This document shows, piece by piece, positions 32,727 through 57,547 of a stretch of DNA of 64,000 nt (position 1 is the stretch's first letter; the number at the start of each line of letters is the position of its first letter). Location: contig OX465286.1 of assembly GCA_949987705.1 (NCBI GenBank), positions 15,637,676 through 15,701,675 on the forward strand. The letters run 5' to 3'. The position numbers and the translations under genes are program-made. The notes under the pieces are model-generated. The model was not told the origin of the DNA. It ran no database searches and worked only from the letters and a program-made list of their open reading frames with translations. The stretch comes from Thereva unica. Lineage: Eukaryota; Arthropoda; Insecta; Diptera; Therevidae.

Positions 32727-33012
32727 GCCACTCAGTTATTTTTAAATTTATTATCACGGAATATTTTCTTTTCAGCCCAATTTACCAGCATCAGCTCCTC
32801 AGTTAGAAGAGATTCTTGAACATTATAGGAAAACTGGGCCTAGGAAATTCCCACCGATAAAATACGATGCAAAACCGAGCTCAAGTGAAGATAGTAATAG
32901 CTCAGAATTTTCTGAAAAGCCTACTCCAATTTTTGAGATATCTGACACTTCAGAGGAAGAAGAAATAAAACCTCCCCCCAAAAAAGCTAAGGTGAAATAT
33001 ACTCAGTTATTT
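32727..33012 (+). repeat. Exon array, first unit (left of the LOA-like LINE)
   Basis: One unit of the exon-intron repeat. The acceptor TTTTCAG ends at 32775. The exon 32776-32991 (216 bp, 72 codons, phase 0) begins PNLPASAPQLEEILEHYRK and ends KPPPKKAK. The donor-like AAG/GTGAAAT is at 32992. The next unit is cut after TTATTT by the LINE. Confidence 0.95.
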
Positions 33013-36000
33013 GGAACAGGGAAGTGGACGACTCGCATGTCAACGCAGTCACGCAGGAAAGCGTAGAAGCGGCGGCGAGCGAGCTAGTGAAGCTGAACCT
33101 GGAGGTATGCTCAGAGAAGGTGGACAATGCGATGCAGCAATGTGTCAAGAGGTCAGCCGGCTCTGGGCCTACGTTAGCGCAGGAATCCGACTCGGAAGTG
33201 AGGCTGCGAAAGCAGCTGAAGCAGAAGAGGAAGAGGGAGCGCAGAAGACAGAAGAAGGCATCTTCCTCTGTTGGGGGATCGGCCGAGTCCACTCCGGAGG
33301 AGGTGGGACCCACGAAGAGGTTTAGAGGTGAAAGTCTCTGCACCGCAGCCGTGGGTTCTACTGTCGAAGGGGAGGATAAGGCCAGGGAAAGGAAGGGTGG
33401 ACAACCTCAACCTGTAAAACAGGGAGGAGTCAACCCTTCTGTCTCGGGGGTCGTGCGTGCGGAGCCTGTGGCGGAGAATACCTACGCAGGCATAGCAGGC
33501 TGTGACCTCCGTTTGGGTGTGACCGACGATGGAAGGGAGGAGGGTCTGGGCACGAAGCAGGTAACCGTTTTTAAAGCGGCCCTGCTCAAGGCACTAGACT
33601 CTCTGCCTGACAACGCTGGCGACATCGGTATTACCGAGGTAGACTTGGAGGACGGGGTCATTGCACTCAGGTGCGTGAACCAAAAATCCAAGGCCTGGCT
33701 GTACGAAGCTGTCGGAAAGATGACTGACCTATGGGAAGGAGTCAATCTGAGAGTGGAGCGCCTTCACATCCTTAAGGATGTGAGGAGGATGATCATCCGA
33801 GTTCCCGGTTCGCCGGAGAGCAAGGAAACCATCCTAGCCAGATTACGTCGTCAAAATGCCTGTGTGACGGACACTTCTAAGTGGAGGGTCAGTCGCATAG
33901 GCAGATATCGTGACGCGAAAACCGGCGGTACCATTCTCACCGTATGGTGTCCGAAGGAGGAGGCGGAGGCGGTCAGGCGTGCAGGGGGGAAACTCAACTG
34001 CGGGCTGGACCTTGCCTACGTGCGATTCCAGAAGGACAAGCCGGAGGAAATGGTAGAGCCGGCCGGAAAGGCAGCTGAACAAGGGGACCAGTGAAATGGA
34101 ATCCTCGTCAGCTGGGCGGGAGGTGGGCCAGTTCCGGCAATTAAAGGTTTGCCAGTTGAATCTACACCATAGCAGAGCAGCATCAGCAATGATGACGCGA
34201 GGCTTCGGTGAGATGAAGCTGGATATTGCTCTCATACAGGAACCCTGGATCTACAAGGGTAGGATTAGGGGACTATCTGGGAGCTTTGACACTCTGTACG
34301 TTCCCAATGCGAATGAAAGAGTGAGGACGTGTGTGCTGGTGAAACACGGAGTGCAGGCGGTTTTACTGCCGCACTTGTGCACACCAGATCTCACAGCAGT
34401 ACGCGTAGGTACTGGAAGTGGGGCTTTCATTCTAGCCTCAGCCTACCTTCCGTACGATTCGCCAGATCCTCCGCCCACCAGGGAGTTGGAAATTCTGGTT
34501 ATTACCTGTGGCGAAAAAGGCACAGGGTTAATAGTTGGTTGCGACGCAAATGCACACAACACGGTGTGGGGAAGCACCAACGACAACCATAGAGGAGAGG
34601 CTTTGCTTGAATTTGTGGAATGCAACAATCTAGTTATTGCAAATAGAGGGGTAACCTTCGTCGATGCTAGACGAAGGGAAGTCATAGATATAACTCTATG
34701 CAGCAACCGGATGTTGACAAGATTAGCCAACTGGGAGGTGATGGATCGGACGACTATGTCAGATCACAGAGCCATTTCATTTGAGATAGAGTACGGAACC
34801 CCGGGCAGGGGAGACGGAATTAGAACAACGAGAATTCCCCGCAACACGGACACGTCTAGATATACTGAAATGTTGCGCAGGAATCTCGGGGAGCGCGTGC
34901 CAAGGGCACCGAAAACCACAAGAGAAGCAGAGTCTCAGTTGCATGTCCTGCAGACAGCGATAGAGAACGCTTTTCGAGTGGCGTGTCCTCTTACGTCAGT
35001 GGATGACCATGATCCCACACCCTGGTGGTGTAGGGAGCTGGAGAAACTGAAGAAAGAGGTCAGAAGGGCTTTCAACCAAGCGATGAGGTGCAATGACCCG
35101 GTTGCCTGGGAGAATTACAAAGCCAAGAAAAGAGAAATGAAACAAACTCTGCGACGACGGAAAATTGAGTCGTGGAGGGATTTCTGCTCGAGCATGGAGA
35201 GCATATCTGAGGCCAGCAGACTTCAGAAAATGATCTCCAGGGACCCGGTCTCCAAAGTCGGACTCGTTCGTGACCCGTCGGGGAGGATGACGGAGACGCT
35301 GGAGGAAACCAACAAGATCCTGATGGAAGTTCACTTTCCTGGCAGCTATATCTCGGGTAAATCTTGGACTATTCGTAACAGAATGGCTACAAGGATGAAC
35401 CGAGAGGAGGTTAACGGGGTGGTGACGGAAGAAGGGGTGAGACGTGCAATAGACACATTCTCTCCCTTCAAGACATCGGGGCGTGACGGAATATTCCCTG
35501 CGCTGCTTCAATGGGGCAAAGATATCATTGCACCCAGGCTTAGGGGAATATTCGTTACCTGTCTAGCAACAGGATACATTCCGGCGGTGTGGAGGGAAAC
35601 CAAAGTGGTATTTCTCCCTAAGCCAGGCAAGAAGGACTACACCGAGGCGAAGTCCTCCAGGCCAGTCAGCCTAACATCCTTTCTGTTGAAAACAATGGAA
35701 AGAGTGGTGGCAGACCACCTGGAGAGTACTATGCTAAGGAGGCACCCTTTAAGTAGAAGCCAGCACGCTTACCAGGCTGGCAGATCTACAGAAACGGCAC
35801 TTCACCAACTGGTGCGAGTAGCCGAGGGGGAACTGTATACCGGAGGCATAGCGATGGCCGTTATTATGGACATCGAAGGCGCCTTCGACAAGATACAGTT
35901 CAACAAACTCAAAGACGCTCTGGTGAGGCGCGAGGTCAGCCCCATGATTGTAAGGTGGGTGGACAGCATGCTGAAAAACAGAGCGGTAAGGATTCAGACA

Positions 36001-37560
36001 GGAGACTCGCGGCTTCGAGGGAGGGTCAGCAAGGGATGCCCACAGGGCGGGGTCCTATCGCCCCTCCTGTGGAACATCACTGTGGACACTCTGCTCAGGC
36101 GGCTAGAGGTAATGGGCGTGCATACCGTTGGGTATGCAGATGATGTAGCGATTGTGGCACGTGGCAAGTTTATGAGCACTACGGCAGATATCATGAGGAA
36201 TGCACTCCAAGTGGTTGAGCAGTGGTGTACGGAACAGGGCCTCACCATAAATGCCAATAAGACAGACGCGATAATCTTCACTAGGAAGATTAAAGATCTG
36301 GATTTTCAGCCCCTCATGCTTTTTGGATCGAGGATCAAGGTGTCTGGGATGGTCAAGTATCTGGGTGTATACTTGGACTCGCGACTAACCTGGAAATACC
36401 ACGTTGAAGAGAAGATTAAGAAGGCGACAAGGGTGCTTCACCAGTGCAGAAGAGTATGTGGACTAAGGTGGGGTATCTCACCAAGGTTAGCATACTGGAC
36501 ATATACCATGATGGTGAGACCCATCATAACTTATGCCTCGGTGGTCTGGTGGACTAAAGCCACACAGAAAACCGTCAAGAGGCATTTGGACAAGGTGCAA
36601 AGAATGGCCTGCGTAGGTGTGAGTGGTGCTTTCCGCACCACACCCGCCGCGGCATTGGAGGCGCTGTTAGGTCTGCTGCCGTTAGATCTCCAGGTGATGA
36701 AGACTGCGGCAGCCTCAGCGATTCGGATGAGACGTGATGCCGCATGGCAGGCGTCAGGAACCTTATATGGGCACATGAAGATCCTGGATCGCATTAAAGG
36801 GATTAGGGAGCTCATGATGCCCATGGAAGGGATCACAAAAATGAGGGTGACCGAAAGGTATCATAAAACCCTCATAGGGAACGGAACGCTCCGCGAAGGG
36901 AGACCGGAAGACATATATATCTTCACGGACGGATCCAAGATTGACGGCAGAGCAGGTGCGGGAGTCTTCTCGGAGGACTTAAATCTGACCTGCTCTCTGG
37001 CTTTGGGGAATTACACCTCAGTCTACCAGGCGGAAATGCTTGCTCTGCTGCACGCGCTGGATCACATAAGTGAGGGTCAGGTGCAGGGAAGAAGTATCCT
37101 TATAGCACTGGACAATCAGGCTGTGATTAAGCGCATGAATCAGACAGAGATTAATGCGTCTCTGGCGTTGGAATGTGTCCAAAAACTGAACAGGTGTGCG
37201 AAACAAAACAACGTGACGCTAGCTTGGGTTAGAGGACATACAGGCATCGATGGGAACGAAAAGGCTGACAACCTGGCAAAACAGGGGTCAACCTCGGAAT
37301 TCTGGGGACCGGAGCCATACTCTGCCATTGGCAGAGGGTTGGTGAGGAACTGCATCGAGAAATGGGTCGCTGAGGAACACCGGAGACGGTGGGACGCTAT
37401 GACCACGTGTAGGCAGGCTAAGATGGTGCTTACGTTGCCGATTACCGCAGCCAGAAGAAGGATCCTGCATATGCAAAGGAGAACCCTCAGATGGTTGGTG
37501 GCACTGATTACAGGACACGGATGTTTCAGGTATCACCTAAAAAGAATGGGAATTCTGGAG
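33013..37560 (+). mobile_element. LOA/R1-group LINE lacking both ends, inserted in the exon array
   Basis: The element carries a 5'-truncated ORF1 and an ORF2 with endonuclease, RT and RNase H, but no 5'UTR, no ORF2 C-terminal Cys/His region, no 3'UTR and no poly(A). Relative to an intact unit about 45 bp of array (end of the intron and start of the exon) is missing at the site, and there is no target duplication. Normal target-primed insertion keeps the 3' end, so the fragment probably came by rearrangement or repair. RNase H in ORF2 together with a DUF4780-like ORF1 points to the LOA clade. Confidence 0.85.
33015..34094 (+). CDS. LOA-type LINE ORF1 (5'-truncated)
   Basis: The frame is open from the junction with the array; no ATG precedes it, and GTG at 33024 is only an ORF-caller start. 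About residues 60-80 are a Lys/Arg-rich run (KQLKQKRKRERRRQKK), then a Pro/Gly/Val-rich linker. The last 170 residues are a folded domain: VTVFKAALLKALDSLP, VIALRCVNQKSKAWLYEAV, DLWEGVNLRVERL, MIIRVPGSP, LARLRRQNACVTDTSKWRVS, TILTVWC, CGLDLAYVRF. This order resembles the DUF4780 domain of LOA-clade ORF1 proteins (from memory of the pattern). No CCHC knuckles are present. TGA is followed after one base by the ORF2 ATG. Confidence 0.75.
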   Translation, partial: NREVDDSHVNAVTQESVEAAASELVKLNLEVCSEKVDNAMQQCVKRSAGSGPTLAQESDSEVRLRKQLKQKRKRERRRQKKASSSVGGSAESTPEEVGPTKRFRGESLCTAAVGSTVEGEDKARERKGGQPQPVKQGGVNPSVSGVVRAEPVAENTYAGIAGCDLRLGVTDDGREEGLGTKQVTVFKAALLKALDSLPDNAGDIGITEVDLEDGVIALRCVNQKSKAWLYEAVGKMTDLWEGVNLRVERLHILKDVRRMIIRVPGSPESKETILARLRRQNACVTDTSKWRVSRIGRYRDAKTGGTILTVWCPKEEAEAVRRAGGKLNCGLDLAYVRFQKDKPEEMVEPAGKAAEQGDQ

Positions 37561-38130
37561 GCATCAGCTCCTCAGTTAGAAGAGATTCTTGAACATTATA
37601 AGAAAACTGGGCCTAGGAAATTCCCACCGATAAAATACGATGCAAAACCGAGCTCAAGTGAAGATAGTAATAGCTCAGAATTTTCTGAAAAGCCTACTCC
37701 AATTTTTGAGATATCTGACACTTCAGAGGAAGAAGAAATAAAACCTCCCCCCAAAAAAGCTAAGGTGAAATATACTCAGTTATTTTTAAATTTATTATCA
37801 CGGAATATTTTCTTTTCAGTCCAATTTACCAGCATCAGCTCCTCAGAAGAGATTCTTCAACATTATAGGAAAACTGGGCCTAGGAAATTCCCACCGATAA
37901 AATACGATGCAAAACCGAGCTCAAGTGAAGATAGTAATAGCTCAGAATTTTCTGAAAAGCCTACTCCAATTTTTGAGATATCTGACACTTCAGAGGAAGA
38001 AGAAATAAAACCTCCCCCCAAAAAAGCTAAGGTGAAATATACTCAGTTATTTTTAAATTTATTATCACGGAATATTTTCTTTTCAGCCCAATTTACCAGC
38101 ATCAGCTCCTCAGTTAGAAGAGATTCTTGA
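34096..38130 (+). CDS. LOA-type LINE ORF2 (endonuclease-RT-RNase H) fused in frame to the exon array
   Basis: The ORF is 1344 codons. Residues 1-1155 are LINE. The endonuclease starts KVCQLNLHHSRAAS, then LIQEPWIYKG, VGCDANAHN and SDHRAISFE (about residues 16-235). The RT has VVFLPKPGKKDY, HAYQAGRSTETALHQL, AVIMDIEGAFDKI, KGCPQGGVLSPLLWNI and GYADDV (679-684). RNase H has TDGSK (D945), QAEMLAL (E980), LDNQAV (D1006) and VRGHTGIDGNEKAD. The protein is cut at KRMGILE, before the usual C-terminal zinc finger. From 37561 it reads ASAPQLEEILEHYKK, the exact phase-0 frame of the array exon, then through one intron and part of the next two units to a stop. All catalytic motifs are intact. The fusion protein is probably not functional for transposition. 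Confidence 0.85.
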   Translation: MESSSAGREVGQFRQLKVCQLNLHHSRAASAMMTRGFGEMKLDIALIQEPWIYKGRIRGLSGSFDTLYVPNANERVRTCVLVKHGVQAVLLPHLCTPDLTAVRVGTGSGAFILASAYLPYDSPDPPPTRELEILVITCGEKGTGLIVGCDANAHNTVWGSTNDNHRGEALLEFVECNNLVIANRGVTFVDARRREVIDITLCSNRMLTRLANWEVMDRTTMSDHRAISFEIEYGTPGRGDGIRTTRIPRNTDTSRYTEMLRRNLGERVPRAPKTTREAESQLHVLQTAIENAFRVACPLTSVDDHDPTPWWCRELEKLKKEVRRAFNQAMRCNDPVAWENYKAKKREMKQTLRRRKIESWRDFCSSMESISEASRLQKMISRDPVSKVGLVRDPSGRMTETLEETNKILMEVHFPGSYISGKSWTIRNRMATRMNREEVNGVVTEEGVRRAIDTFSPFKTSGRDGIFPALLQWGKDIIAPRLRGIFVTCLATGYIPAVWRETKVVFLPKPGKKDYTEAKSSRPVSLTSFLLKTMERVVADHLESTMLRRHPLSRSQHAYQAGRSTETALHQLVRVAEGELYTGGIAMAVIMDIEGAFDKIQFNKLKDALVRREVSPMIVRWVDSMLKNRAVRIQTGDSRLRGRVSKGCPQGGVLSPLLWNITVDTLLRRLEVMGVHTVGYADDVAIVARGKFMSTTADIMRNALQVVEQWCTEQGLTINANKTDAIIFTRKIKDLDFQPLMLFGSRIKVSGMVKYLGVYLDSRLTWKYHVEEKIKKATRVLHQCRRVCGLRWGISPRLAYWTYTMMVRPIITYASVVWWTKATQKTVKRHLDKVQRMACVGVSGAFRTTPAAALEALLGLLPLDLQVMKTAAASAIRMRRDAAWQASGTLYGHMKILDRIKGIRELMMPMEGITKMRVTERYHKTLIGNGTLREGRPEDIYIFTDGSKIDGRAGAGVFSEDLNLTCSLALGNYTSVYQAEMLALLHALDHISEGQVQGRSILIALDNQAVIKRMNQTEINASLALECVQKLNRCAKQNNVTLAWVRGHTGIDGNEKADNLAKQGSTSEFWGPEPYSAIGRGLVRNCIEKWVAEEHRRRWDAMTTCRQAKMVLTLPITAARRRILHMQRRTLRWLVALITGHGCFRYHLKRMGILEASAPQLEEILEHYKKTGPRKFPPIKYDAKPSSSEDSNSSEFSEKPTPIFEISDTSEEEEIKPPPKKAKVKYTQLFLNLLSRNIFFSVQFTSISSSEEILQHYRKTGPRKFPPIKYDAKPSSSEDSNSSEFSEKPTPIFEISDTSEEEEIKPPPKKAKVKYTQLFLNLLSRNIFFSAQFTSISSSVRRDS

Positions 38131-41100
38131 ACATTATAGGAAAACTGGGCCTAGGAAATTCCCACCGATAAAATACGATGCAAAACCGAGCTCAAGTGAA
38201 GATAGTAATAGCTCAGAATTTTCTGAAAAGCCTACTCCAATTTTTGAGATATCTGACACTTCAGAGGAAGAAGAAATAAAACCTCCCCCCAAAAAAGCTA
38301 AGGTGAAATATACTCAGTTATTTTTAAATTTATTATCACGGAATATTTTCTTTTCAGCCCAATTTACCAGCATCAGCTCCTCAGTTAGAAGAGATTCTTG
38401 AACATTATAGGAAAACTGGGCCTAGGAAATTCCCACCGATAAAATACGATGCAAAACCGAGCTCAAGTGAAGATAGTAATAGCTCAGAATTTTCTGAAAA
38501 GCCTACTCCAATTTTTGAGATATCTGACACTTCAGAGGAAGAAGAAATAAAACCTCCCCCAAAAAAGCTAAGGTGAAATATACTCAGTTATTTTTAAATT
38601 TATTATCACGGAATATTTTCTTTTCAGCCCAATTTACCAGCATCAGCCCCTCAGTTAGAAGAGATTCTTGAACATTATAGGAAAACTGGGCCTAGGAAAT
38701 TCCCACCGATAAAATACGATGCAAAACCGAGCTCAAGTGAAGATAGTAATAGCTCAGAATTTTCTGAAAAGCCTACTCCAATTTTTGAGATATCTGACAC
38801 TTCAGAGGAAGAAGAAATAAAACCTCCCCCCAAAAAAGCTAAGGTGAAATATACTCAGTTATTTTTAAATTTATTATCACGGAATATTTTCTTTTCAGCC
38901 CAATTTACCAGCATCAGCTCCTCAGAAGAGATTCTTCAACATTATAGGAAAACTGGGCCTAGGAAATTCCCACCGATAAAATACGATGCAAAACCGAGCT
39001 CAAGTGAAGATAGTAATAGCTCAGAATTTTCTGAAAAGCCTACTCCAATTTTTGAGATATCTGACACTTCAGAGGAAGAAGAAATAAAACCTCCCCCCAA
39101 AAAAGCTAAGGTGAAATATACTCAGTTATTTTTAAATTTATTATCACGGAATATTTTCTTTTCAGCCCAATTTACCAGCATCAGCCCCTCAGTTAGAAGA
39201 GATTCTTGAACATTATAGGAAAACTGGGCCTAGGAAATTCCCACCGATAAAATACGATGCAAAACCGAGCTCAAGTGAAGATAGTAATAGCTCAGAATTT
39301 TCTGAAAAGCCTACTCCAATTTTTGAGATATCTGACACTTCAGAGGAAGAAGAAATAAAACCTCCCCCCAAAAAAGCTAAGGTGAAATATACTCAGTTAT
39401 TTTTAAATTTATTATCACGGAATATTTTCTTTTCAGCCCAATTTACCAGCATCAGCTCCTCAGAAGAGATTCTTCAACATTATAGGAAAACTGGGCCTAG
39501 GAAATTCCCACCGATAAAATACGATGCAAAACCGAGCTCAAGTGAAGATAGTAATAGCTCAGAATTTTCTGAAAAGCCTACTCCAATTTTTGAGATATCT
39601 GACACTTCAGAGGAAGAAGAAATAAAACCTCCCCCCAAAAAAGCTAAGGTGAAATATACTCAGTTATTTTTAAATTTATTATCACGGAATATTTTCTTTT
39701 CAGCCCAATTTACCAGCATCAGCTCCTCAGAAGAGATTCTTCAACATTATAGGAAAACTGGGCCTAGGAAATTCCCACCGATAAAATACGATGCAAAACC
39801 GAGCTCAAGTGAAGATAGTAATAGCTCAGAATTTTCTGAAAAGCCTACTCCAATTTTTGAGATATCTGACACTTCAGAGGAAGAAGAAATAAAACCTCCC
39901 CCCAAAAAAGCTAAGGTGAAATATACTCAGTTATTTTTAAATTTATTATCACGGAATATTTTCTTTTCAGCCCAATTTACCAGCATCAGCTCCTCAGAAG
40001 AGATTCTTCAACATTATAGGAAAACTGGGCCTAGGAAATTCCCACCGATAAAATACGATGCAAAACCGAGCTCAAGTGAAGATAGTAATAGCTCAGAATT
40101 TTCTGAAAAGCCTACTCCAATTTTTGAGATATCTGACACTTCAGAGGAAGAAGAAATAAAACCTGCCCCCAAAAAAGCTAAGGTGAAATATACTCAGTTA
40201 TTTTTAAATTTATTATCACGGAATATTTTCTTTTCAGCCCAATTTACCAGCATCAGCTCCTCAGTTAGAAGAGATTCTTGAACATTATAGGAAAACTGGG
40301 CCTAGGAAATTCCCACCGATAAAATACGATGCAAAAGCGAGCTCAAGTGAAGATAGTAATAGCTCAGAATTTTCTGAAAAGCCTACTCCAATTTTTGAGA
40401 TATCTGACACTTCAGAGGAAGAAGAAATAAAACCTCCCCCCAAAAAAGCTAAGGTGAAATATACTCAGTTATTTTTAAATTTATTATCACGGAATATTTT
40501 CTTTTCAGCCCAATTTACCAGCATCAGCTCCTCAGTTAGAAGAGATTCTTGAACATTATAGGAAAACTGGGCCTAGGAAATTCCCACCGATAAAATACGA
40601 TGCAAAAGCGAGCTCAAGTGAAGATAGTAATAGCTCAGAATTTTCTGAAAAGCCTACTCCAATTTTTGAGATATCTGACACTTCAGAGGAAGAAGAAATA
40701 AAACCTCCCCCCAAAAAAGCTAAGGTGAAATATACTCAGTTATTTTTAAATTTATTATCACGGAATATTTTCTTTTCAGCCCAATTTACCAGCATCAGCT
40801 CCTCAGTTAGAAGAGATTCTTGAACATTATAGGAAAACTGGGCCTAGGAAATTCCCACCGATAAAATACGATGCAAAAGCGAGCTCAAGTGAAGATAGTA
40901 ATAGCTCAGAATTTTCTGAAAAGCCTACTCCAATTTTTGAGATATCTGACACTTCAGAGGAAGAAGAAATAAAACCTCCCCCCAAAAAAGCTAAGGTGAA
41001 ATATACTCAGTTATTTTTAAATTTATTATCACGGAATATTTTCTTTTCAGCCCAATTTACCAGCATCAGCTCCTCAGTTAGAAGAGATTCTTGAACATTA

Positions 41101-43710
41101 TAGGAAAACTGGGCCTAGGAAATTCCCACCGATAAAATACGATGCAAAACCGAGCTCAAGTGAAGATAGTAATAGCTCAGAATTTTCTGAAAAGCCTACT
41201 CCAATTTTTGAGATATCTGACACTTCAGAGGAAGAAGAAATAAAACCTCCCCCCAAAAAAGCTAAGGTGAAATATACTCAGTTATTTTTAAATTTATTAT
41301 CACGGAATATTTTCTTTTCAGCCCAATTTACCAGCATCAGCTCCTCAGTTAGAAGAGATTCTTCAACATTATAGGAAAACTGGGCCTAGGAAATTCCCAC
41401 CGATAAAATACGATGCAAAAGCGAGCTCAAGTGAAGATAGTAATAGCTCAGAATTTTCTGAAAAGCCTACTCCAATTTTTGAGATATCTGACACTTCAGA
41501 GGAAGAAGAAATAAAACCTCCCCCCAAAAAAGCTAAGGTGAAATATACTCAGTTATTTTTAAATTTATTATCACGGAATATTTTCTTTTCAGCCCAATTT
41601 ACCAGCATCAGCTCCTCAGTTAGAAGAGATTCTTGAACATTATAGGAAAACTGGGCCTAGGAAATTCCCACCGATAAAATACGATGCAAAAGCGAGCTCA
41701 AGTGAAGATAGTAATAGCTCAGAATTTTCTGAAAAGCCTACTCCAATTTTTGAGATATCTGACACTTCAGAGGAAGAAGAAATAAAACCTCCCCCCAAAA
41801 AAGCTAAGGTGAAATATACTCAGTTATTTTTAAATTTATTATCACGGAATATTTTCTTTTCAGCCCAATTTACCAGCATCAGCTCCTCAGTTAGAAGAGA
41901 TTCTTCAACATTATAGGAAAACTGGGCCTAGGAAATTCCCACCGATAAAATACGATGCAAAAGCGAGCTCAAGTGAAGATAGTAATAGCTCAGAATTTTC
42001 TGAAAAGCCTACTCCAATTTTTGAGATATCTGACACTTCAGAGGAAGAAGAAATAAAACCTCCCCCCAAAAAAGCTAAGGTGAAATATACTCAGTTATTT
42101 TTAAATTTATTATCACGGAATATTTTCTTTTCAGCCCAATTTACCAGCATCAGCTCCTCAGTTAGAAGAGATTCTTCAACATTATAGGAAAACTGGGCCT
42201 AGGAAATTCCCACCGATAAAATACGATGCAAAAGCGAGCTCAAGTGAAGATAGTAATAGCTCAGAATTTTCTGAAAAGCCTACTCCAATTTTTGAGATAT
42301 CTGACACTTCAGAGGAAGAAGAAATAAAACCTCCCCCCAAAAAAGCTAAGGTGAAATATACTCAGTTATTTTTAAATTTATTATCACGGAATATTTTCTT
42401 TTCAGCCCAATTTACCAGCATCAGCTCCTCAGTTAGAAGAGATTCTTCAACATTATAGGAAAACTGGGCCTAGGAAATTCCCACCGATAAAATACGATGC
42501 AAAAGCGAGCTCAAGTGAAGATAGTAATAGCTCAGAATTTTCTGAAAAGCCTACTCCAATTTTTGAGATATCTGACACTTCAGAGGAAGAAGAAATAAAA
42601 CCTCCCCCCAAAAAAGCTAAGGTGAAATATACTCAGTTATTTTTAAATTTATTATCACGGAATATTTTCTTTTCAGCCCAATTTACCAGCATCAGCTCCT
42701 CAGTTAGAAGAGATTCTTGAACATTATAGGAAAACTGGGCCTAGGAAATTCCCACCGATAAAATACGATGCAAAAGCGAGCTCAAGTGAAGATAGTAATA
42801 GCTCAGAATTTTCTGAAAAGCCTACTCCAATTTTTGAGATATCTGACACTTCAGAGGAAGAAGAAATAAAACCTCCCCCCAAAAAAGCTAAGGTGAAATA
42901 TACTCAGTTATTTTTAAATTTATTATCACGGAATATTTTCTTTTCAGCCCAATTTACCAGCATCAGCTCCTCAGTTAGAAGAGATTCTTCAACATTATAG
43001 GAAAACTGGGCCTAGGAAATTCCCACCGATAAAATACGATGCAAAACCGAGCTCAAGTGAAGATAGTAATAGCTCAGAATTTTCTGAAAAGCCTACTCCA
43101 ATTTTTGAGATATCTGACACTTCAGAGGAAGAAGAAATAAAACCTCCCCCCAAAAAAGCTAAGGTGAAATATACTCAGTTATTTTTAAATTTATTATCAC
43201 GGAATATTTTCTTTTCAGCCCAATTTACCAGCATCAGCTCCTCAGAAGAGATTCTTCAACATTATAGGAAAACTGGGCCTAGGAAATTCCCACCGATAAA
43301 ATACGATGCAAAACCGAGCTCAAGTGAAGATAGTAATAGCTCAGAATTTTCTGAAAAGCCTACTCCAATTTTTGAGATATCTGACACTTCAGAGGAAGAA
43401 GAAATAAAACCTCCCCCCAAAAAAGCTAAGGTGAAATATACTCAGTTATTTTTAAATTTATTATCACGGAATATTTTCTTTTCAGCCCAATTTACCAGCA
43501 TCAGCTCCTCAGTTAGAAGAGATTCTTCAACATTATAGGAAAACTGGGCCTAGGAAATTCCCACCGATAAAATACGATGCAAAAGCGAGCTCAAGTGAAG
43601 ATAGTAATAGCTCAGAATTTTCTGAAAAGCCTACTCCAATTTTTGAGATATCTGACACTTCAGAGGAAGAAGAAATAAAACCTCCCCCCAAAAAAGCTAA
43701 GGTGAAATAT
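37561..43710 (+). repeat. Exon array, block 2 (23 exon copies)
   Basis: Head-to-tail units of 271 bp (CTCAGTTAGAAGAG) or 267 bp (CTCAGAAGAG), starting inside an exon at the LINE junction and ending at the hAT-like MITE. In 271-bp units the exon is 216 bp, phase 0 at both ends, between a 55-bp AT-rich intron with TTTTCAG acceptor and a GTGAAAT donor. Encoded segments per exon: LEEIL(E/Q)HYRKTGPRKFPP, SSSEDSNSSEFSE, SDTSEEEE and PPPKKAK. Copies vary mainly at Pro/Ala (AAACCGAG or AAAGCGAG) and Glu/Gln (CTTGAAC or CTTCAAC). One unit near 38558 lost a C in the CCCCCC run, a frameshift. Confidence 0.96.
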
Positions 43711-44278
43711 CAGGGTTTCGAACCCTGTAAATTTTGGGTGCGGGTACGGGTTCGGGTTCAATACCCTGAAATTTAGTGGGTTCAGGTTCGGGTTCGGGTT
43801 CGGGTTCAAGCTTTTTCCCAGCAAAAACAAAACAAAGAATAGAGGTGAAACCAAAAAAGATGACGCCGGAGCGCGCATCTGGGGAAATGAAAACTGCACA
43901 CAAAAAGAAATTGCCCACATATGGATAAGAAACGTGCTTATGTATTTTCAAATTTCCCCTTCGAAATTTGTTGCGACTAGGCTAAGGGACGGGAATGGCA
44001 TGCGGGGATTCTACTGCGCATGGATATCGAGTCTTTTCTCGGCGTCATTTTTTTGGTTTCACCTCTAAAAATCTTGTTTGAAAGAAAAAGAAAATTCTCC
44101 GAAATCTGAAATTTAAATTTTTAAGCGCCGCACACTTAGATAATAATTGCCGTTAAAAATTGAACCTGAACCGAGTTTTTGATTGGGTTCGGGTCCGGGT
44201 TCGGGTTCAAAAAATTTAAAAAAAATCTTGAACCGGAGCGGGTTCAGGGTTCGGGTTCGGTTCGGGTTCGAAACCCTG
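43711..44278. mobile_element. 568-bp hAT-like MITE with 8-bp target duplication
   Basis: The ends are CAGGGTTTCGAACCC (43711-43725) and its exact inverse (44264-44278). The array sequence TGAAATAT is duplicated on both sides (43703-43710 and 44279-44286). An 8-bp duplication and a CAGGG start are typical of hAT elements. Both subterminal regions carry GGGTTC repeats in direct tandem. There is no transposase. It sits in the donor/intron part of a unit, so it postdates the amplification. Confidence 0.9.
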
Positions 44279-47200: not shown

Positions 47201-50200
47201 TGACACTTCAGAGGAAGAAGAAATAAAACCTCCCCCCAAAAAAGCTAAGGTGAAATATACTCAGTTATTTTTAAATTTATTATCACGGAATATTTTCTTT
47301 TCAGCCCAATTTACCAGCATCAGCTCCTCAGTTAGAAGAGATTCTTGAACATTATAGGAAAACTGGGCCTAGGAAATTCCCACCGATAAAATACGATGCA
47401 AAACCGAGCTCAAGTGAAGATAGTAATAGCTCAGAATTTTCTGAAAAGCCTACTCCAATTTTTGAGATATCTGACACTTCAGAGGAAGAAGAAATAAAAC
47501 CTCCCCCCAAAAAAGCTAAGGTGAAATATACTCAGTTATTTTTAAATTTATTATCACGGAATATTTTCTTTTCAGCCCAATTTACCAGCATCAGCTCCTC
47601 AGAAGAGATTCTTCAACATTATAGGAAAACTGGGCCTAGGAAATTCCCACCGATAAAATACGATGCAAAAGCGAGCTCAAGTGAAGATAGTAATAGCTCA
47701 GAATTTTCTGAAAAGCCTACTCCAATTTTTGAGATATCTGACACTTCAGAGGAAGAAGAAATAAAACCTCCCCCCAAAAAAGCTAAGGTGAAATATACTC
47801 AGTTATTTTTAAATTTATTATCACGGAATATTTTCTTTTCAGCCCAATTTACCAGCATCAGCTCCTCAGAAGAGATTCTTCAACATTATAGGAAAACTGG
47901 GCCTAGGAAATTCCCACCGATAAAATACGATGCAAAAGCGAGCTCAAGTGAAGATAGTAATAGCTCAGAATTTTCTGAAAAGCCTACTCCAATTTTTGAG
48001 ATATCTGACACTTCAGAGGAAGAAGAAATAAAACCTCCCCCCAAAAAAGCTAAGGTGAAATATACTCAGTTATTTTTAAATTTATTATCACGGAATATTT
48101 TCTTTTCAGCCCAATTTACCAGCATCAGCTCCTCAGAAGAGATTCTTCAACATTATAGGAAAACTGGGCCTAGGAAATTCCCACCGATAAAATACGATGC
48201 AAAAGCGAGCTCAAGTGAAGATAGTAATAGCTCAGAATTTTCTGAAAAGCCTACTCCAATTTTTGAGATATCTGACACTTCAGAGGAAGAAGAAATAAAA
48301 CCTCCCCCCAAAAAAGCTAAGGTGAAATATACTCAGTTATTTTTAAATTTATTATCACGGAATATTTTCTTTTCAGCCCAATTTACCAGCATCAGCTCCT
48401 CAGTTAGAAGAGATTCTTCAACATTATAGGAAAACTGGGCCTAGGAAATTCCCACCGATAAAATACGATGCAAAAGCGAGCTCAAGTGAAGATAGTAATA
48501 GCTCAGAATTTTCTGAAAAGCCTACTCCAATTTTTGAGATATCTGACACTTCAGAGGAAGAAGAAATAAAACCTCCCCCCAAAAAAGCTAAGGTGAAATA
48601 TACTCAGTTATTTTTAAATTTATTATCACGGAATATTTTCTTTTCAGCCCAATTTACCAGCATCAGCTCCTCAGAAGAGATTCTTCAACATTATAGGAAA
48701 ACTGGGCCTAGGAAATTCCCACCGATAAAATACGATGCAAAAGCGAGCTCAAGTGAAGATAGTAATAGCTCAGAATTTTCTGAAAAGCCTACTCCAATTT
48801 TTGAGATATCTGACACTTCAGAGGAAGAAGAAATAAAACCTCCCCCCAAAAAAGCTAAGGTGAAATATACTCAGTTATTTTTAAATTTATTATCACGGAA
48901 TATTTTCTTTTCAGCCCAATTTACCAGCATCAGCTCCTCAGAAGAGATTCTTCAACATTATAGGAAAACTGGGCCTAGGAAATTCCCACCGATAAAATAC
49001 GATGCAAAAGCGAGCTCAAGTGAAGATAGTAATAGCTCAGAATTTTCTGAAAAGCCTACTCCAATTTTTGAGATATCTGACACTTCAGAGGAAGAAGAAA
49101 TAAAACCTCCCCCAAAAAAGCTAAGGTGAAATATACTCAGTTATTTTTAAATTTATTATCACGGAATATTTTCTTTTCAGCCCAATTTACCAGCATCAGC
49201 TCCTCAGAAGAGATTCTTCAACATTATAGGAAAACTGGGCCTAGGAAATTCCCACCGATAAAATACGATGCAAAAGCGAGCTCAAGTGAAGATAGTAATA
49301 GCTCAGAATTTTCTGAAAAGCCTACTCCAATTTTTGAGATATCTGACACTTCAGAGGAAGAAGAAATAAAACCTCCCCCCAAAAAAGCTAAGGTGAAATA
49401 TACTCAGTTATTTTTAAATTTATTATCACGGAATATTTTCTTTTCAGCCCAATTTACCAGCATCAGCTCCTCAGTTAGAAGAGATTCTTGAACATTATAG
49501 GAAAACTGGGCCTAGGAAATTCCCACCGATAAAATACGATGCAAAACCGAGCTCAAGTGAAGATAGTAATAGCTCAGAATTTTCTGAAAAGCCTACTCCA
49601 ATTTTTGAGATATCTGACACTTCAGAGGAAGAAGAAATAAAACCTCCCCCCAAAAAAGCTAAGGTGAAATATACTCAGTTATTTTTAAATTTATTATCAC
49701 GGAATATTTTCTTTTCAGCCCAATTTACCAGCATCAGCTCCTCAGTTAGAAGAGATTCTTCAACATTATAGGAAAACTGGGCCTAGGAAATTCCCACCGA
49801 TAAAATACGATGCAAAAGCGAGCTCAAGTGAAGATAGTAATAGCTCAGAATTTTCTGAAAAGCCTACTCCAATTTTTGAGATATCTGACACTTCAGAGGA
49901 AGAAGAAATAAAACCTCCCCCCAAAAAAGCTAAGGTGAAATATACTCAGTTATTTTTAAATTTATTATCACGGAATATTTTCTTTTCAGCCCAATTTACC
50001 AGCATCAGCTCCTCAGTTAGAAGAGATTCTTCAACATTATAGGAAAACTGGGCCTAGGAAATTCCCACCGATAAAATACGATGCAAAAGCGAGCTCAAGT
50101 GAAGATAGTAATAGCTCAGAATTTTCTGAAAAGCCTACTCCAATTTTTGAGATATCTGACACTTCAGAGGAAGAAGAAATAAAACCTCCCCCCAAAAAAG

Positions 50201-53200
50201 CTAAGGTGAAATATACTCAGTTATTTTTAAATTTATTATCACGGAATATTTTCTTTTCAGCCCAATTTACCAGCATCAGCTCCTCAGAAGAGATTCTTCA
50301 ACATTATAGGAAAACTGGGCCTAGGAAATTCCCACCGATAAAATACGATGCAAAAGCGAGCTCAAGTGAAGATAGTAATAGCTCAGAATTTTCTGAAAAG
50401 CCTACTCCAATTTTTGAGATATCTGACACTTCAGAGGAAGAAGAAATAAAACCTCCCCCCAAAAAAGCTAAGGTGAAATATACTCAGTTATTTTTAAATT
50501 TATTATCACGGAATATTTTCTTTTCAGCCCAATTTACCAGCATCAGCTCCTCAGTTAGAAGAGATTCTTGAACATTATAGGAAAACTGGGCCTAGGAAAT
50601 TCCCACCGATAAAATACGATGCAAAACCGAGCTCAAGTGAAGATAGTAATAGCTCAGAATTTTCTGAAAAGCCTACTCCAATTTTTGAGATATCTGACAC
50701 TTCAGAGGAAGAAGAAATAAAACCTCCCCCCAAAAAAGCTAAGGTGAAATATACTCAGTTATTTTTAAATTTATTATCACGGAATATTTTCTTTTCAGCC
50801 CAATTTACCAGCATCAGCTCCTCAGAAGAGATTCTTCAACATTATAGGAAAACTGGGCCTAGGAAATTCCCACCGATAAAATACGATGCAAAAGCGAGCT
50901 CAAGTGAAGATAGTAATAGCTCAGAATTTTCTGAAAAGCCTACTCCAATTTTTGAGATATCTGACACTTCAGAGGAAGAAGAAATAAAACCTCCCCCCAA
51001 AAAAGCTAAGGTGAAATATACTCAGTTATTTTTAAATTTATTATCACGGAATATTTTCTTTTCAGCCCAATTTACCAGCATCAGCTCCTCAGAAGAGATT
51101 CTTGAACATTATAGGAAAACTGGGCCTAGGAAATTCCCACCGATAAAATACGATGCAAAAGCGAGCTCAAGTGAAGATAGTAATAGCTCAGAATTTTCTG
51201 AAAAGCCTACTCCAATTTTTGAGATATCTGACACTTCAGAGGAAGAAGAAATAAAACCTCCCCCCAAAAAAGCTAAGGTGAAATATACTCAGTTATTTTT
51301 AAATTTATTATCACGGAATATTTTCTTTTCAGCCCAATTTACCAGCATCAGCTCCTCAGAAGAGATTCTTCAACATTATAGGAAAACTGGGCCTAGGAAA
51401 TTCCCACCGATAAAATACGATGCAAAAGCGAGCTCAAGTGAAGATAGTAATAGCTCAGAATTTTCTGAAAAGCCTACTCCAATTTTTGAGATATCTGACA
51501 CTTCAGAGGAAGAAGAAATAAAACCTCCCCCCAAAAAAGCTAAGGTGAAATATACTCAGTTATTTTTAAATTTATTATCACGGAATATTTTCTTTTCAGC
51601 CCAATTTACCAGCATCAGCTCCTCAGAAGAGATTCTTCAACATTATAGGAAAACTGGGCCTAGGAAATTCCCACCGATAAAATACGATGCAAAAGCGAGC
51701 TCAAGTGAAGATAGTAATAGCTCAGAATTTTCTGAAAAGCCTACTCCAATTTTTGAGATATCTGACACTTCAGAGGAAGAAGAAATAAAACCTCCCCCCA
51801 AAAAAGCTAAGGTGAAATATACTCAGTTATTTTTAAATTTATTATCACGGAATATTTTCTTTTCAGCCCAATTTACCAGCATCAGCTCCTCAGTTAGAAG
51901 AGATTCTTGAACATTATAGGAAAACTGGGCCTAGGAAATTCCCACCGATAAAATACGATGCAAAACCGAGCTCAAGTGAAGATAGTAATAGCTCAGAATT
52001 TTCTGAAAAGCCTACTCCAATTTTTGAGATATCTGACACTTCAGAGGAAGAAGAAATAAAACCTCCCCCCAAAAAAGCTAAGGTGAAATATACTCAGTTA
52101 TTTTTAAATTTATTATCACGGAATATTTTCTTTTCAGCCCAATTTACCAGCATCAGCTCCTCAGTTAGAAGAGATTCTTGAACATTATAGGAAAACTGGG
52201 CCTAGGAAATTCCCACCGATAAAATACGATGCAAAAGCGAGCTCAAGTGAAGATAGTAATAGCTCAGAATTTTCTGAAAAGCCTACTCCAATTTTTGAGA
52301 TATCTGACACTTCAGAGGAAGAAGAAATAAAACCTCCCCCCAAAAAAGCTAAGGTGAAATATACTCAGTTATTTTTAAATTTATTATCACGGAATATTTT
52401 CTTTTCAGCCCAATTTACCAGCATCAGCTCCTCAGTTAGAAGAGATTCTTCAACATTATAGGAAAACTGGGCCTAGGAAATTCCCACCGATAAAATACGA
52501 TGCAAAAGCGAGCTCAAGTGAAGATAGTAATAGCTCAGAATTTTCTGAAAAGCCTACTCCAATTTTTGAGATATCTGACACTTCAGAGGAAGAAGAAATA
52601 AAACCTCCCCCCAAAAAAGCTAAGGTGAAATATACTCAGTTATTTTTAAATTTATTATCACGGAATATTTTCTTTTCAGCCCAATTTACCAGCATCAGCT
52701 CCTCAGAAGAGATTCTTCAACATTATAGGAAAACTGGGCCTAGGAAATTCCCACCGATAAAATACGATGCAAAAGCGAGCTCAAGTGAAGATAGTAATAG
52801 CTCAGAATTTTCTGAAAAGCCTACTCCAATTTTTGAGATATCTGACACTTCAGAGGAAGAAGAAATAAAACCTCCCCCCAAAAAAGCTAAGGTGAAATAT
52901 ACTCAGTTATTTTTAAATTTATTATCACGGAATATTTTCTTTTCAGCCCAATTTACCAGCATCAGCTCCTCAGTTAGAAGAGATTCTTGAACATTATAGG
53001 AAAACTGGGCCTAGGAAATTCCCACCGATAAAATACGATGCAAAACCGAGCTCAAGTGAAGATAGTAATAGCTCAGAATTTTCTGAAAAGCCTACTCCAA
53101 TTTTTGAGATATCTGACACTTCAGAGGAAGAAGAAATAAAACCTCCCCCCAAAAAAGCTAAGGTGAAATATACTCAGTTATTTTTAAATTTATTATCACG

Positions 53201-56200
53201 GAATATTTTCTTTTCAGCCCAATTTACCAGCATCAGCTCCTCAGTTAGAAGAGATTCTTGAACATTATAGGAAAACTGGGCCTAGGAAATTCCCACCGAT
53301 AAAATACGATGCAAAACCGAGCTCAAGTGAAGATAGTAATAGCTCAGAATTTTCTGAAAAGCCTACTCCAATTTTTGAGATATCTGACACTTCAGAGGAA
53401 GAAGAAATAAAACCTCCCCCCAAAAAAGCTAAGGTGAAATATACTCAGTTATTTTTAAATTTATTATCACGGAATATTTTCTTTTCAGCCCAATTTACCA
53501 GCATCAGCTCCTCAGAAGAGATTCTTCAACATTATAGGAAAACTGGGCCTAGGAAATTCCCACCGATAAAATACGATGCAAAAGCGAGCTCAAGTGAAGA
53601 TAGTAATAGCTCAGAATTTTCTGAAAAGCCTACTCCAATTTTTGAGATATCTGACACTTCAGAGGAAGAAGAAATAAAACCTCCCCCCAAAAAAGCTAAG
53701 GTGAAATATACTCAGTTATTTTTAAATTTATTATCACGGAATATTTTCTTTTCAGCCCAATTTACCAGCATCAGCTCCTCAGAAGAGATTCTTCAACATT
53801 ATAGGAAAACTGGGCCTAGGAAATTCCCACCGATAAAATACGATGCAAAAGCGAGCTCAAGTGAAGATAGTAATAGCTCAGAATTTTCTGAAAAGCCTAC
53901 TCCAATTTTTGAGATATCTGACACTTCAGAGGAAGAAGAAATAAAACCTCCCCCCAAAAAAGCTAAGGTGAAATATACTCAGTTATTTTTAAATTTATTA
54001 TCACGGAATATTTTCTTTTCAGCCCAATTTACCAGCATCAGCTCCTCAGAAGAGATTCTTCAACATTATAGGAAAACTGGGCCTAGGAAATTCCCACCGA
54101 TAAAATACGATGCAAAAGCGAGCTCAAGTGAAGATAGTAATAGCTCAGAATTTTCTGAAAAGCCTACTCCAATTTTTGAGATATCTGACACTTCAGAGGA
54201 AGAAGAAATAAAACCTCCCCCCAAAAAAGCTAAGGTGAAATATACTCAGTTATTTTTAAATTTATTATCACGGAATATTTTCTTTTCAGCCCAATTTACC
54301 AGCATCAGCTCCTCAGTTAGAAGAGATTCTTCAACATTATAGGAAAACTGGGCCTAGGAAATTCCCACCGATAAAATACGATGCAAAAGCGAGCTCAAGT
54401 GAAGATAGTAATAGCTCAGAATTTTCTGAAAAGCCTACTCCAATTTTTGAGATATCTGACACTTCAGAGGAAGAAGAAATAAAACCTCCCCCCAAAAAAG
54501 CTAAGGTGAAATATACTCAGTTATTTTTAAATTTATTATCACGGAATATTTTCTTTTCAGCCCAATTTACCAGCATCAGCTCCTCAGTTAGAAGAGATTC
54601 TTGAACATTATAGGAAAACTGGGCCTAGGAAATTCCCACCGATAAAATACGATGCAAAACCGAGCTCAAGTGAAGATAGTAATAGCTCAGAATTTTCTGA
54701 AAAGCCTACTCCAATTTTTGAGATATCTGACACTTCAGAGGAAGAAGAAATAAAACCTCCCCCCAAAAAAGCTAAGGTGAAATATACTCAGTTATTTTTA
54801 AATTTATTATCACGGAATATTTTCTTTTCAGCCCAATTTACCAGCATCAGCTCCTCAGAAGAGATTCTTCAACATTATAGGAAAACTGGGCCTAGGAAAT
54901 TCCCACCGATAAAATACGATGCAAAAGCGAGCTCAAGTGAAGATAGTAATAGCTCAGAATTTTCTGAAAAGCCTACTCCAATTTTTGAGATATCTGACAC
55001 TTCAGAGGAAGAAGAAATAAAACCTCCCCCCAAAAAAGCTAAGGTGAAATATACTCAGTTATTTTTAAATTTATTATCACGGAATATTTTCTTTTCAGCC
55101 CAATTTACCAGCATCAGCTCCTCAGAAGAGATTCTTCAACATTATAGGAAAACTGGGCCTAGGAAATTCCCACCGATAAAATACGATGCAAAAGCGAGCT
55201 CAAGTGAAGATAGTAATAGCTCAGAATTTTCTGAAAAGCCTACTCCAATTTTTGAGATATCTGACACTTCAGAGGAAGAAGAAATAAAACCTCCCCCCAA
55301 AAAAGCTAAGGTGAAATATACTCAGTTATTTTTAAATTTATTATCACGGAATATTTTCTTTTCAGCCCAATTTACCAGCATCAGCTCCTCAGAAGAGATT
55401 CTTCAACATTATAGGAAAACTGGGCCTAGGAAATTCCCACCGATAAAATACGATGCAAAAGCGAGCTCAAGTGAAGATAGTAATAGCTCAGAATTTTCTG
55501 AAAAGCCTACTCCAATTTTTGAGATATCTGACACTTCAGAGGAAGAAGAAATAAAACCTCCCCCCAAAAAAGCTAAGGTGAAATATACTCAGTTATTTTT
55601 AAATTTATTATCACGGAATATTTTCTTTTCAGCCCAATTTACCAGCATCAGCTCCTCAGTTAGAAGAGATTCTTCAACATTATAGGAAAACTGGGCCTAG
55701 GAAATTCCCACCGATAAAATACGATGCAAAAGCGAGCTCAAGTGAAGATAGTAATAGCTCAGAATTTTCTGAAAAGCCTACTCCAATTTTTGAGATATCT
55801 GACACTTCAGAGGAAGAAGAAATAAAACCTCCCCCCAAAAAAGCTAAGGTGAAATATACTCAGTTATTTTTAAATTTATTATCACGGAATATTTTCTTTT
55901 CAGCCCAATTTACCAGCATCAGCTCCTCAGTTAGAAGAGATTCTTCAACATTATAGGAAAACTGGGCCTAGGAAATTCCCACCGATAAAATACGATGCAA
56001 AAGCGAGCTCAAGTGAAGATAGTAATAGCTCAGAATTTTCTGAAAAGCCTACTCCAATTTTTGAGATATCTGACACTTCAGAGGAAGAAGAAATAAAACC
56101 TCCCCCCAAAAAAGCTAAGGTGAAATATACTCAGTTATTTTTAAATTTATTATCACGGAATATTTTCTTTTCAGCCCAATTTACCAGCATCAGCTCCTCA

Positions 56201-57454
56201 GAAGAGATTCTTCAACATTATAGGAAAACTGGGCCTAGGAAATTCCCACCGATAAAATACGATGCAAAAGCGAGCTCAAGTGAAGATAGTAATAGCACAG
56301 AATTTTCTGAAAAGCCTACTCCAATTTTGGAGATATCTGACACTTCAGAGGAAGAAGAAATAAAACCTCCCCCCAAAAAAGCTAAGGTGAAATATACTCA
56401 GTTATTTTTAAATTTATTATCACGGAATATTTTCTTTTCAGCCCAATTTACCAGCATCAGCTCCTCAGAAGAGATTCTTCAACATTATAGGAAAACTGGG
56501 CCTAGGAAATTCCCACCGATAAAATACGATGCAAAAGCGAGCTCAAGTGAAGATAGTAATAGCTCAGAATTTTCTGAAAAGCCTACTCCAATTTTTGAGA
56601 TATCTGACACTTCAGAGGAAGAAGAAATAAAACCTCCCCCCAAAAAAGCTAAGGTGAAATATACTCAGTTATTTTTAAATTTATTATCACGGAATATTTT
56701 CTTTTCAGCCCAATTTACCAGCATCAGCTCCTCAGAAGAGATTCTTCAACATTATAGGAAAACTGGGCCTAGGAAATTCCCACCGATAAAATACGATGCA
56801 AAAGCGAGCTCAAGTGAAGATAGTAATAGCTCAGAATTTTCTGAAAAGCCTACTCCAATTTTTGAGATATCTGACACTTCAGAGGAAGAAGAAATAAAAC
56901 CTCCCCCCAAAAAAGCTAAGGTGAAATATACTCAGTTATTTTTAAATTTATTATCACGGAATATTTTCTTTTCAGCCCAATTTACCAGCATCAGCTCCTC
57001 AGAAGAGATTCTTCAACATTATAGGAAAACTGGGCCTAGGAAATTCCCACCGATAAAATACGATGCAAAAGCGAGCTCAAGTGAAGATAGTAATAGCTCA
57101 GAATTTTCTGAAAAGCCTACTCCAATTTTTGAGATATCTGACACTTCAGAGGAAGAAGAAATAAAACCTCCCCCCAAAAAAGCTAAGGTGAAATATACTC
57201 AGTTATTTTTAAATTTATTATCACGGAATATTTTCTTTTCAGCCCAATTTACCAGCATCAGCTCCTCAGAAGAGATTCTTCAACATTATAGGAAAACTGG
57301 GCCTAGGAAATTCCCACCGATAAAATACGATGCAAAAGCGAGCTCAAGTGAAGATAGTAATAGCTCAGAATTTTCTGAAAAGCCTACTCCAATTTTTGAG
57401 ATATCTGACACTTCAGAGGAAGAAGAAATAAAACCTCCCCCCAAAAAAGCTAAG
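44279..57454 (+). repeat. Exon array, block 3 (49 exon copies)
   Basis: This continues the 267/271-bp array; for example exon 44333-44548 is 216 bp and exon 44604-44815 is 212 bp. Runs of consecutive 267-bp units give long open frames through exon and intron: 302 codons at 47521, 53434 and 54777, 388 at 50744 and 475 at 56120. Higher-order repeats are visible: 1343 bp (three 267 plus two 271) at 53434 and 54777, and 1080 bp (one 267 plus three 271) at 44549 and 49126. Identity between units is close to complete. A C deletion (CCCCCAAAAAAGC) occurs near 46423 and 49111. The terminal exon ends AAG at 57454. Confidence 0.96.
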
Positions 57455-57547
57455 GTGAGTTATTTAATAATTTTGAACTTTCTTCGTTCTTTACCAGCGT
57501 ATGTTCTGCATGGCTTCGTATATAAAACTCTTTCCAGTACCTCCTAA
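57455..57547 (+). promoter_or_regulatory. Strong splice donor ending the array, with possible downstream exon
   Basis: The last exon is followed by GTGAGTTATTT instead of GTGAAATATAC, so this unit alone has a near-consensus donor and leaves the repeat. Possible acceptors follow: TTTACCAG (ending 57497) and TTTCCAG (ending about 57539). The first would give a 43-bp intron and a 19-codon open end (RMFCMASYIK...) closed by TGA. The second gives an 85-bp intron. This suggests the right border of the ancestral host gene. It is not proven by transcript data. Confidence 0.45.

What the first reader, a model, noticed from the sequence alone, without database searches (positions are those of the whole stretch)
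32727..57454. 73-copy tandem array of one small exon together with its mini-intron
Each unit holds an acceptor (TTTTCAG), a 216-bp symmetric phase-0 exon, a donor (AAG/GTGAAAT) and a 55-bp intron. I count 1 + 23 + 49 exon copies across three blocks. If transcribed and spliced, the array could encode a giant protein of repeated 72-residue blocks. If silent, it is a satellite born from a genic exon. Either is unusual, and I know of no described family for the repeat sequence.
Basis: partly seen in the sequence, partly recalled or inferred. Interest (0 to 1): 0.88.

Follow-up and report, generated by a model that had tools for sequence, protein, structure and literature searches.

The report
Satellite array born from one exon
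A stretch of insect-like DNA repeats one small exon-like sequence and its mini-intron 73 times, but nearly half the copies are broken, so it is most likely a young satellite repeat made from a piece of a gene and not a giant gene.

Summary
The array is real: 73 exon copies in blocks of 1, 23 and 49 at 32730-57454; 70 of 73 following introns are complete (55 nt) and identical. But only 39 of 73 exons are exactly 216 nt. 31 of 73 share one 4-bp deletion, 3 (one of them also deleted) lack one base in a C-run, and one is cut by a LINE. If every exon were spliced, the frame would end in the third unit; the longest all-spliced frame from u03 on is 818 aa.

The exon looks genuine. Its frame stays open in 0.7% of shuffles. 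The acceptor is strong, and the last copy alone ends in a near-consensus donor, GTGAGT; elsewhere the unit junction, 4 nt into the intron, gives the weaker GTGAAA. Common variants are recombined and neighbours resemble each other. Insertions and flanks are transposon and pseudogene debris.

Best reading: a young satellite-like array made from one exon plus intron slices, kept uniform by unequal exchange and conversion. The parental gene was not found, because the genome search did not complete. Nopp140/treacle kinship is only a recalled lead. A giant protein is not supported.

The parts
32730..32775 (+). left edge of the array: last 46 nt of the unit's intron, ending in the acceptor TTTTCAG; the flank to its left (...CAGGCC) differs from the unit and lacks the GTGAAATAT donor half
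32776..32991 (+). copy u01, 216-nt exon; GTGAAATAT follows, then 12 more intron bases to 33012
33013..37560 (+). non-LTR retrotransposon (ORF1 with DUF4780; ORF2 with endonuclease, RT, RNase H); lacks the C-terminal 60-72 residues that four relatives have, and its 3' end; ORF2 runs in frame into u02
37561..43710 (+). block of 23 copies u02-u24; u02 has lost its acceptor and the first 12 exon bases
43711..44278 (.). 568-bp MITE-like element with inverted ends CAGGGTTTCGAACCC and 8-bp target duplication TGAAATAT, inserted in the donor/intron after u24 (hAT-like by recalled criteria)
44279..57454 (+). block of 49 copies u25-u73, mixed 271-bp and 267-bp (4-bp deletion) units
57455..57486 (+). right flank directly after the last exon: GTGAGTTATTT..., a near-consensus donor found after no other copy; taken (inference) as the parental intron start
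57487..57556 (-). repeat fragment, 80% identical to window 23683-23752, which lies in a LINE-type frame (by its reading; Pfam gave that frame no family)
58145..58408 (-). 87-aa stop-to-stop frame whose first 56 aa (PKAAVQKPLPKVTPAKKQDSSSDDSSDSDEAPAV...) have the acidic/basic style of Nopp140 (recalled); opposite strand to the array; relation to it unproven
   Evidence: no Pfam match at E<=0.1, no PDB match at E<=10
31604..32359 (+). DOCK6/7-like exon pieces in shifted frames, second copy at 17.8-18.8 kb; the left flank looks like pseudogene material

Best explanation
A young, satellite-like tandem array whose unit is one real protein-coding exon (216 nt, phase 0-0) with 46 nt of the intron before it, the first 4 nt (GTGA) of the intron after it, and 5 nt of junction sequence. 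A first tandem duplication joined GTGA to the upstream intron; unequal exchange and gene conversion then spread and homogenised the 271-bp unit to at least 73 copies, together with a 4-bp-deleted 267-bp form. It lies among transposons and pseudogene fragments and does not encode a giant protein. Shown: anatomy, copy number in this assembly, frame breaks, variant mixing, debris flanks. Inferred: that the exon comes from a real gene, perhaps an acidic/basic nucleolar-type (Nopp140/treacle-like) protein; the order of events; that the array is heterochromatic and not translated.
For: Exon reality: frame 0 is open over 72 codons in 0.7% of 5000 dinucleotide shuffles, any forward frame in 1.6%.

No giant protein: 39 of 73 exons are frame-intact. 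Splicing everything from any start u03-u73 gives 26-818 aa.

Satellite dynamics: 70 of 70 complete introns identical. Three common variants occur in 7 of 8 combinations, all four gametes for each pair, one of them in a single copy. Adjacent units share a haplotype 43% of the time against 20% in shuffles, 0 of 5000 reaching it.

No protein constraint seen: 8 substitution sites, 7 nonsynonymous and 1 synonymous by my reading, against 476:135 opportunities plus 37 to stops, P = 1.

Insertions and flanks: LINE, MITE, repeat fragment, BEL-like pol, DOCK pieces, 311-bp satellite.
Against: No parental single-copy exon could be shown: the genome search did not complete (19 calls), and two protein searches found nothing. 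The window cannot show whether the array is transcribed or where on a chromosome it lies. Eight substitution sites are few for a selection test. The near-identity could partly reflect assembly consensus. 39 of 73 exons are intact and one run of 11 is open over 792 aa, so partial coding is not excluded by sequence alone.
Confidence: 0.78

Rival explanations
1. A giant gene: the array is transcribed, spliced exon by exon, and makes a protein of repeated 72-residue blocks, as LPA makes repeated kringles.
For: 39 of 73 exons are intact and phase 0-0; introns are uniform with canonical ends; one run of 11 intact exons (u12-u22) encodes 792 aa.
Against: 34 of 73 exons break the frame or are truncated. 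The all-spliced frame ends 26 codons into u03 and no start from u03 on gives more than 818 aa. A LINE separates copy 1 from the rest and internal donors are weak. No joining exon was recognised upstream (read by eye). Nonsynonymous variants are as common as chance allows.
Confidence: 0.03
2. An unspliced repeat protein: the 4-bp deletion makes a 267-bp (89-codon) unit that is open straight through the intron, so runs of short units code without splicing.
For: Stop-to-stop frames of 203-557 aa, the longest over six copies (u68-u73), run through retained introns.
Against: A shuffled intron stays open in this frame 31% of the time (single-base shuffle). The longest run of 212-nt exons is 5, and in this frame a 271-bp unit entered through a retained intron meets a stop. 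The intron part reads as AT-rich polypyrimidine sequence.
Confidence: 0.02
3. A silencing array: sense or antisense transcripts of the array become small RNAs that pair with the parental gene's mRNA, as Su(Ste) repeats act on Stellate in Drosophila.
For: 73 near-identical copies of an exon sequence, 72 with their full 5' ends; neighbourhood of transposon fragments. PMC8794474 (passages) names Su(Ste) as a source of piRNAs.
Against: Nothing in the sequence shows transcription. That paper found no testis piRNAs, only some reads under 23 nt, for two amplified Y families of the simulans clade. The parental gene is not identified.
Confidence: 0.06
4. An ordinary satellite with chance splice-like borders and a chance open frame; no gene was involved.
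For: No homologous protein was found. [quoted passage not shown]
Against: Open 72-codon frame, strong acceptor and a near-consensus terminal donor occur together with a length divisible by three; the encoded peptide has an acidic/basic/proline pattern.
Confidence: 0.1
5. Assembly artefact: the true copy number or order differs, or the array is a mis-joined collapse.
For: One-base losses in a C-run in 3 of 73 copies look like long-read errors; long identical tandem DNA is hard to assemble.
Against: Two insertions with unique junctions and a patterned mix of haplotypes along the array argue for real sequence.
Confidence: 0.05

Closest known systems
Satellite DNA arising from local, non-transposon sequence (e.g. 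novel Y satellites of the Drosophila simulans clade, PMC8794474, passages; review PMC12692304, passages and section 7)
   Same: Tandem units next to transposons, a proposed birth by break repair with template switching and spread by unequal exchange
   Different: Here the unit is one exon with canonical splice borders. Section 7 of the review names transposons, rDNA spacers and other repeats as sources; the word exon does not occur in its main text
Ampliconic Y-linked gene families and Stellate/Su(Ste) of Drosophila (PMC8794474, passages)
   Same: Gene-derived, highly similar copies with gene conversion inferred from four-gamete tests
   Different: Those units hold whole or nearly whole genes (recalled); here one exon and slices of introns, with no promoter or transcript shown
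LPA kringle IV-2 repeat (5.6 kb per unit, 1-40 units; PMC11462820, abstract in search listing)
   Same: Tandem copies of exon plus intron, little variation between copies
   Different: LPA units code inside a working gene; here 34 of 73 units break the frame or are truncated and no surrounding gene was recognised
Tandem exon duplications such as Dscam exon arrays (PMC3236188, abstract in listing; PMC9013439, abstract in listing and two passages)
   Same: Tandem copies of one exon with its intron
   Different: Those are dozens at most and chosen one at a time; here 73 near-identical copies, many broken
Nopp140 (NOLC1) and treacle (PMC9133508, PMC7197718, passages)
   Same: Acidic serine clusters between basic/proline stretches, four [ST]xx[DE] sites; a place just after a LisH domain is recalled, not tested
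   Different: No sequence match obtained by any search; Drosophila Nopp140 has a long second exon (1650 bp in a figure legend), not a 216-nt one

Membership tests
Satellite DNA (long tandem array, non-coding) | head-to-tail units, high copy number, high identity | tested here: met
   73 copies, 271/267 bp, TRF 96% matches
Satellite DNA (long tandem array, non-coding) | homogenisation by unequal exchange or conversion | tested here: met
   7 of 8 haplotype combinations, all four gametes for each pair of common sites; neighbour identity 0.431 vs 0.199 shuffled
Satellite DNA (long tandem array, non-coding) | not translated | tested here: inconclusive
   frame breaks or truncation in 34 of 73 units; no expression data
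Satellite DNA (long tandem array, non-coding) | other arrays elsewhere in the genome or heterochromatic location | not testable with these tools
   The genome search did not complete (19 calls)
Giant repeat-protein gene (LPA-like) | repeats keep one open frame through the array | tested here: not met
   39 of 73 exons intact; longest all-spliced frame 818 aa, frame ends in u03
Giant repeat-protein gene (LPA-like) | upstream coding exon that can join to the first repeat | tested here: inconclusive
   left edge is mid-intron; open frames of at least 45 aa at 23000-32800 read by eye showed none, DOCK-like pieces instead; no gene finder, and an exon further away is not excluded
Nopp140/treacle kinship of the exon | significant similarity to a family member | tested here: inconclusive
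   protein searches: none of 21 candidates at E<=1, no candidate; PDB none at E<=10. The searches need shared exact words, and no Nopp140 sequence was aligned in a call
Pfam PF23357 (DUF7088) | curated score reached by a single copy | tested here: not met
   one copy 13.3 bits against cut-off 27.8; a typed three-copy chain reached 30.6, the only one of 11 families listed for it above its cut-off, by adding three weak matches

The most novel reading that the evidence does not exclude
The array is transcribed in the germ line, and its many near-identical sense exons (spliced, or read through the mini-intron in the 267-bp units) feed small RNAs or decoy transcripts that regulate the parental nucleolar-type gene: a satellite that keeps a dialogue with the gene from which its unit was cut.
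Probability: 0.06. Interest if true: 0.75.

Novelty: new member of a known kind. Interest (0 to 1): 0.36.

Why it matters
If the reading holds, it is a clean case of satellite birth from a genic exon with the birth junction still readable: the parental donor survives in the last copy only, and the others carry the junction 4 nt into the intron. Because it has few variants, it could be used to time unequal exchange and conversion, and to ask whether a satellite made of exons with splice-like borders is transcribed, spliced or silenced.

Tried and rejected
Giant spliced protein: rejected because 34 of 73 units break the frame or are truncated. Unspliced 89-codon protein from 267-bp units: the open frame across the intron is expected by chance 31% of the time. 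Tandem duplication through the 7-bp word GTTATTT shared by the right flank and the intron: a shared word that long arises in 62% of shuffles and the junction does not use it. Exon under constraint while intron drifts: the trend is the opposite, 8 variable sites in 216 against 0 in 55, not significant, P 0.37. Antisense coding of the unit: each of the three reverse frames has stops. DUF7088 match of the three-copy chain: repeated weak match, rejected. Searches for the unit by exact pattern: 0 matches in viral contigs and 0 in genome contigs (the tool says records of the window's own genome may be left out). Rfam, whole window, gathering threshold: 0 matches among 4227 families. Paper searches for exon-derived satellites, seen as listings: 1 of 1 listed; 3 of 3; 15 of 697; 1 of 1; 20 of 25; 17 of 17. 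No title or abstract start among those describes such an array; that is no proof of absence.
Full report
OBSERVATION. Tandem Repeats Finder reports a 271-bp period at 37561-57458, score 36231; its 73.8 copies include the length of a MITE. Anchoring on the donor side gives 73 exon copies and 72 acceptors between 32776 and 57454. The array proper starts in mid-intron at 32730. Of 73 sequences that follow an exon, 70 are complete 55-nt introns and all 70 are identical.

Exon lengths are 216 nt in 39 of 73 copies, 212 in 30, 215 in 2, 211 in 1; one copy (u02) is truncated by the LINE. The short copies, 31 of 73 counting the 211-nt one, share a 4-bp deletion, CAGTTAGAAG to CAGAAG. In the spliced frame they stop at codon 27. 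Three copies (u05, u32, u42; u42 is also deleted) lack one base in a run of C, which may be a sequencing error. Splicing all exons from any start from u03 to u73 gives frames of 26 to 818 aa, the longest from u12. So the array cannot make a 73-block protein by constitutive splicing.

A CURIOSITY. The deletion makes the unit 267 bp, 89 codons, and the frame then runs open through the intron: stop-to-stop frames of up to 557 aa occur unspliced. A shuffled intron with the same ends stays open in this frame 31% of the time, so I take this as chance.

WHY IT LOOKS LIKE A REAL EXON. Frame 0 of the 216-nt exon is open in 0.7% of 5000 dinucleotide shuffles, and any of three forward frames in 1.6%. The simplest reading is that the right edge is the parental exon-intron border, and that the first duplication joined GTGA to the upstream intron, costing the other copies the +5 G. 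The 5 bases AATAT at the junction are filler or upstream sequence. A 7-bp word shared by both sides is not significant.

HOW IT EVOLVES. In the alignment of the 73 exons the variation consists of eight substitution sites, the 4-bp deletion, the one-base C loss and the truncation of u02. The three common variants occur in 7 of 8 combinations, with all four gametes for every pair, one gamete in a single copy. Neighbours share a haplotype in 43% of cases against 20% in 5000 shuffles, none of which reached it. That is the mark of unequal exchange and conversion. Six rare substitutions (five private, one in two copies) in about 19.7 kb suggest a young or very actively homogenised array, with the caveat of assembly consensus. 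Seven of eight substitutions are nonsynonymous by my reading, against 476:135 opportunities plus 37 to stops, P = 1: no sign of protein constraint, though the sample is small. Exon and intron do not differ in variability (P 0.37).

NEIGHBOURHOOD. To the left lie two copies, 99.0-99.7% identical, of a segment with DOCK6/7-like exon pieces in shifted frames (PDB match to DOCK6, E 2.9e-43), a second LINE, a DDE transposase frame and a 311-bp satellite. The LINE inside the array stops where four aligned relatives continue with 60-72 residues, and its ORF2 runs in frame into u02. To the right, 32 bp after the last exon, a repeat fragment begins that is 80% identical to a LINE-type frame at 23.7 kb (LINE-type by its reading, Pfam gave that frame no family). 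Then come a minus-strand acidic/basic frame (58145-58408) and a pol gene with integrase and DUF5641 domains, BEL/Pao by recall. Reading the open frames on both sides by eye I recognised no exon that could join to the array; no gene finder was run.

WHAT THE EXON ENCODES. The 72 residues hold 14 acidic, 11 basic, 13 Ser/Thr and 12 Pro, with four [ST]xx[DE] sites. The style recalls the part of Nopp140 and treacle just after the LisH domain (recalled). PMC9133508 and PMC7197718 (passages only) describe alternating acidic and basic motifs in both proteins, and the former a LisH domain in treacle. No call gave an accepted match: protein searches found none of 21 candidates at E<=1 and no candidate, PDB none, Pfam none above its cut-off for a single copy; a three-copy chain passed the cut-off of DUF7088 only. 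Kinship stays a lead.

KNOWN OR NEW. PMC8794474 (passages) reports novel Y satellites near transposons that may derive from non-repetitive sequence. The review PMC12692304 (section 7 and passages) says a significant share of satellites come from transposons and other repeats, and that virtually any sequence can serve. Repeated exon-intron units in working genes are known (LPA KIV-2, abstract in listing). An array of one exon with its own mini-intron, with 34 of 73 copies out of frame or truncated, is an unusual birth but a known kind of object.

LIMITS. The own genome could not be searched: 19 identical requests did not complete. Transcription, copy number elsewhere, the parental gene and the species remain unknown. 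The insect-like assignment is an inference from the DOCK pieces and the transposons; among the 120 listed LINE relatives the ones with an organism name that I saw were Bactrocera tryoni and Anticarsia gemmatalis (37% identity each) and one labelled as a gammaproteobacterial MAG (41%).

Noticed in passing
1-13931: A second satellite: 311-bp unit, 26.5 and 15.6 copies in two blocks, split by a minus-strand frame at 8387-9175 that reads like a LINE reverse transcriptase end (family by recall, no search run).
   Followed up: no
13936-14915: 2.9 copies of a 340-bp unit at 99% matches, directly abutting the 311-bp satellite; part of the unit recurs at 28709.
   Followed up: no
14710-18848 and 28709-32623: Recent segmental duplication, 99.0-99.7% identical, carrying DOCK6/7-like exon pieces; a 622-bp piece ending at 28709 recurs at 61577-62198.
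   Followed up: partly
34057-38130: The LINE's ORF2 is fused in frame to array exon u02 and on through a retained intron, a 1357-aa stop-to-stop frame.
   Followed up: partly
23068-23277 and 23335-23544: Inverted repeat, 210-nt arms, 94% complementary, 57 nt apart.
   Followed up: no
58183-58242 and 58587-58646: Perfect 60-bp inverted repeat on either side of the Nopp140-like stretch, perhaps a small element that captured an exon.
   Followed up: no
59814-59879: 33 AT dinucleotides inside a BEL-like pol gene.
   Followed up: no
63240-64000: A frame that looks split by an intron (MENLCVTCSRSLTRQRV...) at the window's right end (read by eye), not identified.
   Followed up: no
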